Source: Neobacillus nitrireducens
GTDB lineage: Bacteria > Bacillota > Bacilli > Bacillales > Cytobacillaceae
Direction of reading: 5' to 3'
NCBI RefSeq assembly: GCF_030915405.1
Contig: NZ_CP133262.1
Location: 4,989,001-5,053,000, forward strand
Length of the DNA: 64,000 bases
Below the pieces are notes generated by a model, which saw nothing but the letters and a program-made list of their open reading frames with translations, did not search any database and was not told the DNA's origin. How positions within the stretch are numbered: the first letter of the stretch is position 1; the number at the start of each line of letters is the position of its first letter. A program made the translations under genes and the position numbers. Below, in pieces: positions 38,089-40,908 of the stretch.

Positions 38089-38481
38089 GTGATTTATTTC
38101 TGGGTTGGACTGGGTGGGATTGCCGGCAGTTTGTTCCGATATTTATTATCAGTAATGGCAGTGGCAATCGGGGGAAAGGAATTTCCAATCGGAACCCTTT
38201 TTATTAATGTAACTGGTGCCTTTTTGCTTGGTTTTATGACAAATTATTTTGTGGGTTCCAATAAGATTCATCCTTATCTGAAGACTGCACTTACCACTGG
38301 TGTCATTGGTTCATTTACAACCTTTTCAACATTTTGCTTTGAAACGGTTCATTTATTTGAAACAGGAAAAATCATATTTGGTGTCCTTTATTTATTTGCT
38401 AGTTTATTAGGGGGACTCTTTTTTGTTAAGGCAGGAATGAAACTTGGTGAGCAAGTAAATAAAACTAGGAGCGTTCTATGA
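38089..38481 (+). CDS. crcB: Fluoride channel CrcB/Fluc, subunit 1
   Basis: A 130-residue, four-helix membrane protein of the Fluc family that exports fluoride. It has GGIAGSLFRYLLS, GTLFINVTGAFLLGF (the conserved Asn lining the pore) and TTFSTFCFETV. GTG start behind AGGGGTG. It overlaps the second crcB by 4 bases. Paired genes of this kind encode subunits that assemble in opposite orientations. Confidence 0.92.
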   Translation: MIYFWVGLGGIAGSLFRYLLSVMAVAIGGKEFPIGTLFINVTGAFLLGFMTNYFVGSNKIHPYLKTALTTGVIGSFTTFSTFCFETVHLFETGKIIFGVLYLFASLLGGLFFVKAGMKLGEQVNKTRSVL

Positions 38482-38831
38482 AAGAGATATTATTTATTTC
38501 AATTGGGGGGTTTATAGGGGCAATTGCCCGTTTTAAAATTAACCAATCAATGTACAATAACAAAGGTTTTCCTATTGGTACGCTAACAGTCAATTTAATT
38601 GGTGCTTTTCTTTTAGGTCTCTTATTCGGTTTACATGTACAGGGGTCTTTATATTCTTTGTTGGGAATTGGATTTATGGGCTCGTTTACGACGTTTTCAA
38701 CCTTAATGCTTGATGCCATAAAACTTAATATAGAAAATAAGAAAAAGTTGTATTACGGTTATTTGCTAAGCAGTTACACGATAGGGATCATACTGGCTTT
38801 TTGTGGGCTTTGGTTAGGAAGGAAGATATAA
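38478..38831 (+). CDS. crcB: Fluoride channel CrcB/Fluc, subunit 2
   Basis: A 117-residue partner of the preceding subunit: GGFIGAIARFKIN, GTLTVNLIGAFLLG and FTTFSTLMLD. The positive-charge distribution differs from that of subunit 1 (here KR residues lie after helix 1 and 3), in keeping with inverse insertion. Together they form an antiparallel heterodimer. No fluoride riboswitch was found upstream. Confidence 0.92.
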   Translation: MKEILFISIGGFIGAIARFKINQSMYNNKGFPIGTLTVNLIGAFLLGLLFGLHVQGSLYSLLGIGFMGSFTTFSTLMLDAIKLNIENKKKLYYGYLLSSYTIGIILAFCGLWLGRKI

Positions 38832-38866
38832 AAAAGAAGCATTCGATGATGCTTCTTTTTTACAAA
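38831..38866. terminator. Bidirectional terminator between crcB and yidC
   Basis: AAAAGAAGCATTC with GATGCTTCTTTT, A and T runs on each side. Confidence 0.85.
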
Positions 38867-38870
38867 AAAT

Positions 38871-39665
38871 TTATTTTTGTTTAACTTGAACTTTCGGTGT
38901 CTTATTCGTTTGATAAAGGGATTTGCTGATCATTGTTTGAACAATTAAGAATGTACCGCCAACTACCCAATAAAGAGGCAGGGCTGCAGGAGCATTAAAA
39001 GAAAACATGACAATCATTAAGGGTGACATTAATCCCATGTATTTCATTTGGGCTTGCTGAGCAGAAGGCATATTGGACTGGGAAACTTTAAACTGAAAAT
39101 AGTATATAACCCCAGCAATAATTGTAATAATGATATCCGGATTTCCCAGACTAAACCATAAAAACTCGTGGGTTTTTATCTCTTGTGAACCGCGAATCGC
39201 ATAATAGAAGCCAGTCAAAATAGGCATTTGAATGATCAATGGCAAACAGCCCATATTTAATGGATTAACATTATGCTTTTTATAAAGGCCCATCATTTCA
39301 GCTTGAAGTTCTTGTTTCTTCTTAGGATCCTTTTCCGTTTTCATCCTTGTTTGAATAACGTCCATTTCAGGCTTTAAGACATCCATCTTTTCTTTCATAC
39401 CCATTTGATTTTTATACTGCCTAAGCATAAACGGCATTAACGCAAGTCTGATAATTATAGTAACAAGAATGATCGCCAAACCGTAGTTTCCATTAAAGAA
39501 TTCCGCAACGGAATGGATAGATATTGAAAAAGGATTGACAACGTAATGTTGGAAAAATCCATTATTGTTCGTTCCTTTTTGTGCTTGAGATGAACAAGCT
39601 GATAATAATAATGTGGTTAAGCCGAGCAGTGAGAATAGTAATAGTGAAGAGCGTTTTGTTTTCAT
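38871..39665 (-). CDS. yidC: Membrane protein insertase YidC (OxaA/YqjG-type)
   Basis: The start is ATG 39665 with AGGAGGAAAT immediately upstream. The 264-residue lipoprotein has lipobox LSAC and the five-helix YidC/Oxa1 core. Conserved features are IIIRLALMPFMLRQYKNQ (with the cavity Arg), a helical cytoplasmic hairpin (EKMDVLKPEMD...), GCLPLIIQMPIL and PLYWVVGGTFLIVQ. It inserts membrane proteins with or without SecYEG. The SD is fully sequestered by the end of the upstream MifM-like gene, which marks it as the regulated YidC2 (YqjG) type. Confidence 0.9.
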   Translation of the reverse strand: MKTKRSSLLLFSLLGLTTLLLSACSSQAQKGTNNNGFFQHYVVNPFSISIHSVAEFFNGNYGLAIILVTIIIRLALMPFMLRQYKNQMGMKEKMDVLKPEMDVIQTRMKTEKDPKKKQELQAEMMGLYKKHNVNPLNMGCLPLIIQMPILTGFYYAIRGSQEIKTHEFLWFSLGNPDIIITIIAGVIYYFQFKVSQSNMPSAQQAQMKYMGLMSPLMIVMFSFNAPAALPLYWVVGGTFLIVQTMISKSLYQTNKTPKVQVKQK

Positions 39666-39718
39666 ATTTCCTCCTAAAATGTTGTGAATATATTTAATAA
39701 GCGAATAGGGAGGAAATA
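39665..39718 (-). promoter_or_regulatory. SD-sequestering stem ahead of yidC
   Basis: In the transcript, TATTTCCTCC (39718-39709, inside the MifM-like reading frame) is perfectly complementary to GGAGGAAATA (39674-39665), the yidC SD plus the first base of its ATG. The loop is 34 bases and contains the upstream stop codon. The stem should block yidC translation unless a ribosome sits on the left arm. Confidence 0.8.
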
Positions 39719-39987
39719 GGTTCTTCGGTATCATCCTGAGAATATTCTTTTCTACGAAAATATATAACAATTCTTTTCAGAATAAAGCTTCCATTTAAAC
39801 AACTTTTCTTTCGGTAAAGAACTAATGGGTGAGTGATATTTGTCCTTGCCGGATCAGATAAGGAACCAACAAAAGAATACTCCACACTCCATGCCCATAA
39901 TAATTTTAATGCGATTCCTAAAAAGATACTTACGTATAGAGCGTTTAGGGCATTGATATCTGAACTATCAATAAGCAATTGAAACAA
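39694..39987 (-). CDS. mifM: MifM-like translation-arrest regulatory peptide
   Basis: A 97-residue peptide, TTG start with GAGGTGA 6 bases upstream, ending 28 bases before yidC. One N-terminal membrane segment (about residues 14-33) is followed by a basic stretch. The C-terminus has R72-I73-x2-Y76-F77-R78-R79 and an acidic run D85-D86-T87-E88-E89, eight residues from the end. B. subtilis MifM (95 residues, upstream of yidC2) has, as I recall it, R69-I70-x2-W73-I74-R75-K76 and a DEED cluster where ribosomes stall. It should sense failing membrane insertion and open the yidC SD. Confidence 0.72.
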   Translation of the reverse strand: MFQLLIDSSDINALNALYVSIFLGIALKLLWAWSVEYSFVGSLSDPARTNITHPLVLYRKKSCLNGSFILKRIVIYFRRKEYSQDDTEEPISSLFAY

Positions 39988-40020
39988 ATATTATCACCTC
40001 ACTTAAATGTCAATGATATG

Positions 40021-40049
40021 AGTATATCTGAGATAGGAAAAAGAATCAA
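40021..40049 (-). promoter_or_regulatory. SigA-type promoter of the mifM-like/yidC unit
   Basis: On the minus strand, TTGATT, a 17-base spacer and TATACT. Transcription would start near 40014, about 15 bases before the GAGGTGA SD. Confidence 0.6.
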
Positions 40050-40136
40050 TTTAATAATTGCTTTAATGCCATATTTTGAAGACATTACTAATTACTAAAA
40101 AAGAAAAATTGACTACTGAAACCTTCTTACTTTAAA

Positions 40137-40166
40137 AAAACACTGATTCAGTAGTGAATCAGTGTT
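40137..40166 (-). terminator. Terminator of the pfl operon
   Basis: AACACTGATTCA pairs with TGAATCAGTGTT, with T7 on the minus strand. The pflA stop codon is in the stem. Confidence 0.85.
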
Positions 40167-40908
40167 CGATCGGTGCCTTCCAGTGTGCTGTAATCAATTT
40201 ATAAGCAAACTCGACTTTTTCTTCGCTAGGGGGTTCAACAGAATTAAGTTGATATTCATGTCCAAGTGCTTCCCACTTATACACTCCGAGTTTGTGATAC
40301 GGCAAGATTTCAATCTTTTGGACGTTTTTAAGTGTACCAATGAACTCGCCAAGTTTTTCTAGATCTTCCGGTTCATCGGTAACGGTAGGGACAAGTACAT
40401 GACGCACCCATATTGGAACTTGATGGTCTGATAAAAACGTTGCAAATTCTAGAATATGATCATTAGCCATTCCAGTTAACTGGATATGCTTTTTACGATT
40501 AATATGCTTTAAATCAAGAAGAACTAAATCGGTATACTGCAAGAGTTCTTCAAGCTGTTCGATAAAAAGCTTGGAATGGGAAAAGCAGCCGCCGGATGAA
40601 TCAATGGTCGTATGAATTCCTTTCTTTTTGCATTCCTTGAACAATTCCGTTAAGAAAGGAATTTGCAACAATGGTTCCCCACCACTTACGGTAATTCCTC
40701 CGCCCGAAGATTGAATAAAAGGGAGGTAGGACATAAGATCATCCATGATATCGGAAACAGCCATTTCTTTGCCAGTGCCGATTTCCCAAGTATCAGCATT
40801 ATGGCAAAACTGGCACCTTAATAGGCAGCCTTGTGTGAAAATTACATAACGGATTCCTGGTCCGTCGACTGTCCCTAATGTTTCAATTGAATGAATATTT
40901 CCGTTCAT
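40159..40908 (-). CDS. pflA: Pyruvate formate-lyase activating enzyme
   Basis: A 249-residue radical SAM enzyme. The [4Fe-4S] motif CxxxCxxC is at Cys28, Cys32 and Cys35. GGGITVSGGEPLLQ is the SAM-binding GGE motif. It abstracts hydrogen from the glycine of PflB to create the stable glycyl radical. It lies downstream of pflB, separated by a strong hairpin that probably lowers its expression relative to PflB. Confidence 0.94.
   Translation of the reverse strand: MNGNIHSIETLGTVDGPGIRYVIFTQGCLLRCQFCHNADTWEIGTGKEMAVSDIMDDLMSYLPFIQSSGGGITVSGGEPLLQIPFLTELFKECKKKGIHTTIDSSGGCFSHSKLFIEQLEELLQYTDLVLLDLKHINRKKHIQLTGMANDHILEFATFLSDHQVPIWVRHVLVPTVTDEPEDLEKLGEFIGTLKNVQKIEILPYHKLGVYKWEALGHEYQLNSVEPPSEEKVEFAYKLITAHWKAPIEH

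What the first reader, a model, noticed from the sequence alone, without database searches (positions are those of the whole stretch)
39665..39987. MifM-like arrest peptide controlling yidC through SD sequestration
Seen: a TTG-started 97-codon frame with its own SD and promoter precedes yidC. It has one N-terminal membrane segment, an R-I-x2-Y-F-R-R motif and a D-D-T-E-E run near its end. The last codons (TATTTCCTCC) are perfectly complementary to the yidC SD (GGAGGAAATA). Known: B. subtilis MifM stalls at an acidic C-terminal cluster when membrane insertion by SpoIIIJ fails, which opens the yidC2 SD. Inferred: the same switch here, in a sequence that is strongly diverged, so it tests which residues matter. 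The peptide would be easy to miss in annotation.
Basis: partly seen in the sequence, partly recalled or inferred. Interest (0 to 1): 0.85.

Follow-up and report, generated by a model that had tools for sequence, protein, structure and literature searches.

The report
MifM-family sensor peptide upstream of yidC2
A short, easily overlooked gene in a Neobacillus genome most likely makes a ribosome-stalling peptide of the known MifM family that switches on a backup membrane-insertion protein; it is a well-supported new member of a known kind, with some unusual residues at the expected stalling site.

Summary
A 97-codon TTG frame (39694-39987, minus strand) ends 28 nt before yidC2. It has its own promoter and Shine-Dalgarno (SD) sequence, one N-terminal hydrophobic segment, and a D85-D-T-E-E run followed by a 10-bp complement of the yidC2 SD. 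It is in 58 of 59 other genus genomes searched (Neobacillus by named relatives). The protein is under purifying selection, but codons 91-93 (anti-SD) show the reverse: synonymous change is rare (pS 0.11; 0.50-0.72 elsewhere) while amino acids drift, so that stretch is held at RNA level. The computed cost of opening the yidC2 SD falls from 8.5-11.7 to 3.8 kcal/mol when a ribosome sits at codon 88. A profile of 58 leaders of other genera matches this frame at E 6.6e-18; without its Bacillus rows it matches B. subtilis MifM at 6.6e-7. Its residue register is doubtful: profiles put R72 on MifM W73, not R69, though direct pairwise scoring does not decide. MifM is known, with 572 homologues in print. 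Stalling and YidC-dependent release are inferred, not shown. The open question is a possibly re-wired arrest core (Arg72, Pro90) against an unchanged uL22 loop.

The parts
39694..39987 (-). Leader peptide gene (mifM homologue), 97 codons, TTG start, TAA stop
   Evidence: homologues in 58 of 59 other genus genomes searched; start codon TTG in 57 and GTG in 1 of 58 distinct genus ORFs, window included
40021..40049 (-). Promoter TTGATT-17-TATACT of the leader-yidC2 unit
   Evidence: not above chance alone; conserved place in the genus
39994..40000 (-). SD of the leader, GAGGTGA
   Evidence: similar SD in nearly all genus loci listed
39889..39942 (-). Hydrophobic segment, about residues 16-33
   Evidence: 17-residue hydropathy maximum 1.9 from residue 16; about 52 residues from its end to D85
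39718..39786 (-). Predicted arrest region, residues 68-90 (F I L K R I V I Y F R R K E Y S Q D D T E E P)
   Evidence: pN/pS 0.27 in the genus; L70, R72, R78, K80 in 51 of 51, P90 in 50 of 51; residues 68-89 aligned with MifM 69-90 by joint alignment and profile
39721..39735 (-). Acidic run D85-E89
39709..39718 (-). Anti-SD, 5' arm of the stem, inside codons 90-93
39665..39674 (-). yidC2 SD and first base of its start codon, 3' arm of the stem
38871..39665 (-). yidC2 (264 aa, YidC/Oxa1 family)
   Evidence: PF02096 150.7 bits; below the SpoIIIJ equivalog cut-off, 220 of 377 bits; the other YidC gene lies between ORFs that I read as rnpA and jag (names recalled)
38827..38864 (-). Terminator-like hairpin after yidC2
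40138..40167 (-). Hairpin followed by a T-run between the upstream pflA-like gene and the leader, probably ending the upstream unit
   Evidence: 13-bp stem, -16.5 kcal/mol, z -3.34; not in the terminator list

Best explanation
It is the Neobacillus member of the MifM family: a monitoring-substrate leader peptide for yidC2. SHOWN in silico: a conserved coding leader with one N-terminal hydrophobic segment, a conserved basic-then-acidic C-terminal motif at fixed spacing, and a pairing between codons 90-93 and the yidC2 SD that is held at RNA level. INFERRED: when YidC/SpoIIIJ inserts the nascent peptide, the pull lets the ribosome pass and the stem re-forms, so yidC2 is off; when insertion capacity is short, the ribosome halts with its P-site at about codons 88-91, covers the anti-SD, loosens the yidC2 SD, and yidC2 is made as backup.
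For: Present in 58 of 59 other genus genomes searched. Codons 91-93 pS 0.11 and pN 0.21 against pS 0.50-0.72 in the other segments; Ser codons in residues 89-96 are TCC in 86 of 95, elsewhere in 68 of 459. Opening cost of GGAGGA 11.65 kcal/mol folded from codon 85 (8.54 from codon 60), 9.15 with the P-site at codon 86, 3.80 at codon 88; genus median 9.9 to 3.3 at codon 90, a drop of 1 kcal/mol or more in 57 of 58. Profile of 58 leaders of other genera hits the window frame at 6.6e-18 (best of 2000 shuffles 0.0063), profile-profile probability 99.2%; the set without its two Bacillus rows hits MifM of PDB 3J9W at 6.6e-7 (best shuffle 0.09). A leader of this kind precedes 58 of 62 yidC2-type genes examined in the order (53 by detector, 5 more by eye). 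Leader presence goes with a GGAGG SD on yidC2: 80 of 84 with a leader, 4 of 39 without (labels partly by eye, genomes not independent).
Against: No stall data. If the profile register is right, two residues important in B. subtilis, R69 and W73, are not conserved (F68, R72), and the position of E88 is Ser/Thr/Pro in 46 of 51. The genus profile alone does not significantly find MifM. In the stalled model the SD stays largely paired: median unpaired probability 0.14, up from 0.018, none of 58 above 0.6, partly by pairing with early yidC2 codons; sequence shuffled upstream of the SD gives 0.22, and only 27 of 58 leaders have 5% or fewer of their 40 shuffles at or below them. Outside the order only 22 of 56 examined yidC2-type genes have a leader.
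Confidence: 0.9

Rival explanations
1. Plain translational coupling: ordinary translation of the leader opens the stem and lets yidC2 be translated; there is no programmed arrest and no sensing.
For: The stem and its position inside the leader are enough for coupling; no stall can be shown here.
Against: Coupling needs no conserved peptide, yet residues 68-90 and the hydrophobic segment are conserved (pN/pS 0.27 each), and the anti-SD starts 17-18 nt after the acidic run in 47 of 57 leaders, where a ribosome halted there would cover it.
Confidence: 0.06
2. A small membrane protein with its own function in the membrane, cotranscribed with yidC2 by chance.
For: N-terminus and hydrophobic segment have the lowest dN/dS (0.06-0.09, synonymous sites near saturation).
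Against: The C-terminal tail is free (residues 94-96 pN 0.53) and lies beside an RNA element; 58 of 62 yidC2-type genes examined in the order have such a leader, although a single-sequence search found it in only 1 of 40 genomes outside the genus.
Confidence: 0.03
3. A riboswitch or RNA thermometer in which the stem answers to a ligand or heat, and the open frame is incidental.
For: Perfect 10-bp SD-masking stem.
Against: No Rfam family reaches its threshold at 38700-40300 (the two weak matches are eukaryotic snoRNAs far below it); the frame is under protein-level selection.
Confidence: 0.01

Closest known systems
MifM (YqzJ) of Bacillus subtilis, upstream of yidC2 (yqjG)
   Same: Same place, similar length (97 and 95 codons), N-terminal hydrophobic segment, C-terminal acidic run (D85-E89; MifM D86-D89), SD-masking stem, a separate spoIIIJ; arrest regions align without gap through other genera; uL22 loop VDEGPTLKRFRPRAMGRA identical.
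   Different: In the profile register W73 is Arg in 51 of 51, R69 is F/I/M/L in 48 of 51, the E88 position is Ser/Thr/Pro in 46 of 51; Pro90 follows the acidic run in 50 of 51. The stem's 5' arm lies inside the leader codons, whereas the MifM stem is described as intergenic (PMC6037786, introduction read).
CliM of Clostridia, upstream of a yidC gene
   Same: YidC-monitoring arrest peptide with N-terminal membrane segment and repressive mRNA structure (PMC13183943, passages seen).
   Different: [quoted passage not shown] its earlier name gives the motif K-Y-x-I-W, which the window leader lacks.
ApcA of actinobacteria, upstream of yidC2
   Same: Arrest peptide upstream of yidC2 (PMC10987492, passages seen).
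   Different: R-A-P-G arrest sequence, which the window leader lacks.

Membership tests
MifM family (yidC2 leader) | Open frame directly upstream of, and in the same direction as, a yidC gene | tested here: met
   28 nt between stop and yidC2 start
MifM family (yidC2 leader) | Target is the second yidC; the primary spoIIIJ lies elsewhere | tested here: met
   two PF02096 genes in the genome; the other between ORFs that I read as rnpA and jag
MifM family (yidC2 leader) | N-terminal localisation signal followed by at least 30 residues (published selection rule) | tested here: met
   hydropathy 1.9 at residues 16-32, then over 60 residues; SignalP/TMHMM not run, topology not tested
MifM family (yidC2 leader) | Negative charge below -0.3 in a 5-residue window within residues 70-100 (rule read in PMC10987492, section 19) | tested here: met
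   DDTEE at 85-89, -0.8 per residue, counted by hand (idpr not run)
MifM family (yidC2 leader) | Short spacer from membrane segment to arrest site (published median 54, passage in PMC10987492) | tested here: met
   about 52 residues from residue 33 to D85
MifM family (yidC2 leader) | mRNA structure that masks the yidC2 SD | tested here: met
   (computed, not probed)
MifM family (yidC2 leader) | Sequence relationship to MifM | tested here: met
   through intermediates: 6.6e-18 and 6.6e-7; direct genus profile against MifM 0.064, not significant
MifM family (yidC2 leader) | Ribosome stalls near the acidic run; release depends on YidC | not testable with these tools
   needs toeprint and reporter assays
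B. subtilis-type MifM arrest core (not part of the published selection rule) | R69, I70, W73, I74 and E88, important or in contact in B. subtilis | tested here: inconclusive
Profile register: I70 and I74 kept (I69, I73), R69, W73 and E88 not (F68, R72, T87). Outside the genus W73 is Trp in only 35 of 58 leaders, so it does not define the family.

The most novel reading that the evidence does not exclude
In Neobacillus the MifM arrest core has been re-wired on an unchanged uL22 loop: Arg fixed at the Trp73 site, no acidic residue at the Glu88 site, and a near-invariant Pro90 that would be the incoming or last-added residue at the stall, so that halting depends on a basic tunnel contact plus a proline rather than on Trp73 and Glu88. 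That would be a distinct arrest mechanism inside one family. (Odds lowered from 0.30 to 0.25 because the check showed that direct pairwise scoring does not settle the register.)
Probability: 0.25. Interest if true: 0.55.

Novelty: new member of a known kind. Interest (0 to 1): 0.36.

Why it matters
It places a known sensor in a genus where it is near-universal and where residues thought central to stalling appear changed while the uL22 loop stayed the same, which makes the question of which contacts cause the arrest directly testable. It also gives a clear case of codons kept for RNA pairing: amino acids drift while synonymous sites are nearly frozen. No Pfam or NCBIfam model detects the leader at E up to 1, so a profile of these leaders would help annotation.

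Tried and rejected
Pfam and NCBIfam gave no hit to the leader at E up to 1 (PHROGs and PADLOC not searched). phmmer of the leader against PDB sequences gave only a chance hit, E 0.99. The alignment search over 398 genomes of the class found 6 at E up to 0.01, own included; two of them (G205, G433) look like chance, one (G383) lies next to a yidC2. Homology was therefore reached through yidC2 neighbourhoods. The PF02096 survey of the class printed only the best matches, mostly SpoIIIJ-like as far as I can tell, and was replaced by a YidC2 query. Rfam: nothing over threshold. Promoter scan in the window alone: not above chance. Mononucleotide shuffles of the mRNA between the acidic run and the SD were a weaker test than synonymous recoding, because the SD also pairs with early yidC2 codons. 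Literature: 'Neobacillus' with 'arrest peptide' and yidC, MifM, Paenibacillus found no paper in the held library; MifM with Bacillaceae found one, on ribosome rescue by its title. Whether Neobacillus leaders are among the 572 published homologues could not be checked (no supplements readable).

Full report
What is there. On the minus strand, between a pflA-like gene (40159-40908, name recalled) and yidC2 (38871-39665), lies a 97-codon frame, 39694-39987, starting with TTG. A hairpin followed by a T-run lies behind the upstream gene (the consensus scan did not list it), then comes a TTGATT-17-TATACT promoter, and a terminator-like hairpin follows yidC2, so leader and yidC2 probably form a two-gene unit. 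The genome holds one more YidC gene, between ORFs that I read as rnpA and jag, the usual place of spoIIIJ, so the window gene is the second copy. Named relatives with 71-99% identical leaders are Neobacillus drentensis, N. cucumis and Bacillus/Neobacillus isolates without species name.

Is it a gene. The leader is found, without internal stop, in 58 of 59 other genomes of the genus that were searched. In 51 aligned sequences (of 57 distinct proteins; five with length differences or ambiguous bases and the one from another family left out) residues 2-93 have pN/pS 0.31; residues 2-33 have dN/dS below 0.1, with synonymous sites near saturation. The start codon is TTG in 57 and GTG in 1 of 58 distinct sequences. 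The one genus genome without a hit, G033, has a yidC2 whose frame seems to begin right behind a leader-type SD (GCGAGGTGATATTA-TTG), without leader, GGAGG SD or the first 37 residues of the window protein: it looks like a deletion that joined the leader's initiation site to the yidC2 body; one draft genome, not examined further.

The RNA element. TATTTCCTCC in codons 90-93 pairs perfectly with GGAGGAAATA of the yidC2 SD. Three signs show that the pairing is selected. (a) Complementarity exceeds synonymous recoding on average (21.6 against 14.5 in 57 leaders; 20 of 57 individually at p<0.05). (b) Ser codons in residues 89-96 are TCC in 86 of 95 cases, elsewhere in 68 of 459. (c) Codons 91-93 have pS 0.11 and pN 0.21, while the other segments have pS 0.50-0.72: the bases are kept, the amino acids (I/V/F, S/F, F/S/L) are not. 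The pairing begins 17 or 18 nt after the D85 codon in 47 of 57 leaders, at 19-21 nt in nine and at 28 nt in one.

The switch. The computed cost of opening GGAGGA is 11.65 kcal/mol folded from codon 85 and 8.54 folded from codon 60; a ribosome assumed to cover 16 nt from the first base of its P-site codon leaves 9.15 at codon 86, 6.22 at 87, 3.80 at 88 and 3.57 at 90. Genus medians are 9.9, then 4.7 at 88 and 3.3 at 90; 57 of 58 fall by at least 1 kcal/mol. Against the simple picture, the SD does not become free: the median unpaired probability rises only from 0.018 to 0.14, no leader exceeds 0.6, and shuffles of the upstream part give 0.22, because the SD then pairs weakly with early yidC2 codons. 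That a ribosome can compete with a 3-4 kcal/mol structure but hardly with one of 9-12 is inference.

Family. The leader itself finds no Pfam, NCBIfam or PDB relative. I therefore collected regions upstream of yidC2-type genes: 62 in the order (all hits to the window YidC2 at E 1.1e-66 or better among 130 genomes, a cut I chose) and others in the class. A detector requiring an N-terminal hydrophobic segment and a later acidic run found leaders in 53 of the 62; five more are visible by eye (L099, L106, L108, L119, L129); four have none (L104, L111, L116, L133). Outside the order 22 of 56 examined have one. One leader, L136, matches PDB 3J9W chain AZ, MifM, at 6.2e-48. A profile of 58 non-genus leaders recovers the window frame at 6.6e-18, 2000 shuffles of it reaching 0.0063 at best, and all 56 distinct genus proteins above every shuffle. 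Without its two Bacillus rows that set still recovers MifM at 6.6e-7 (best shuffle 0.09); the Neobacillus profile alone does not (0.064, best shuffle 0.11). Membership rests on intermediates, and on position and anatomy.

Residues. The joint alignment is gapless from MifM 62 to 90: window I69 is I70, R72 is W73, I73 is I74, R78 is R79, D85 is D86, T87 is E88, and the profile without Bacillus and Neobacillus aligns both proteins the same way there. In print, W73, I74 and H68 to alanine compromise stalling and R69, I70 matter (PMC4423224, passages seen), and E88 contacts the peptidyl transferase centre (PMC6037786, introduction read). In the profile register I70 and I74 are kept; R69, W73 and E88 are not: R72 is Arg in 51 of 51, residue 87 is Ser 28, Thr 14, Pro 4 of 51, and Pro90 is present in 50 of 51 with varied codons. 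Outside the genus W73 is Trp in 35 of 58. The uL22 stretch VDEGPTLKRFRPRAMGRA is identical to that of B. subtilis. Because MifM stalls at several successive codons (PMC6037786), a one-codon shift could bring E88 of the window to the place of MifM E88; the re-wired core is a lead, not a result.

Known or new. MifM, its stem and its YidC sensing are established, and a 2024 survey lists 572 homologues from 592 Firmicutes genomes (PMC10987492, section 19 and passages read). This is a new member of that family at most; it may already be in that list. What is added here is the genus-wide RNA-level constraint, the doubt about the residue register, the possibly changed core, and the predicted opening at codon 88.

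Noticed in passing
L086, L112, L118-L120, L125-L127, L130, L134, L159, L162-L165, L168-L179, L181, L185, L186: In these leaders the frame does not stop before yidC2 but runs 37-119 nt into it, usually reading the SD as Gly-Gly and often ATGG as Trp. A ribosome that does not stall would run over the yidC2 start, so occlusion might add to or replace the stem; SD masking is weak in L162 and L163 but strong in L164 and L165. In 14 loci of one such clade (of 18 tried; the rest did not match my search pattern) synonymous change in yidC2 is lowest in the overlap (pS 0.23, then 0.33, 0.42, 0.55), suggestive only, since gene starts often show this.
   Followed up: partly
L166 (genome G033, contig 44): The only genus genome without a leader hit has yidC2 directly behind a leader-type SD and TTG, without leader or GGAGG SD: apparently a natural deletion that frees yidC2 from the switch.
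   Followed up: partly
123 yidC2 upstream regions: A GGAGG SD on yidC2 goes with having a leader (80 of 84) and its lack with having none (35 of 39): a strong SD seems to be kept mainly where it can be masked. Genomes are related, so the Fisher p overstates this.
   Followed up: partly
L082 (G543): Leader that stops inside its acidic run (SEDPDAG-stop), with 52 nt to yidC2 and little computed SD masking: possibly a stall at termination or a decayed leader.
   Followed up: no
window 38089-38831, + strand: Two overlapping small membrane-protein ORFs (130 and 117 aa) that look like a crcB pair (recalled, no call), convergent with yidC2 and ending beside its terminator-like hairpin.
   Followed up: no
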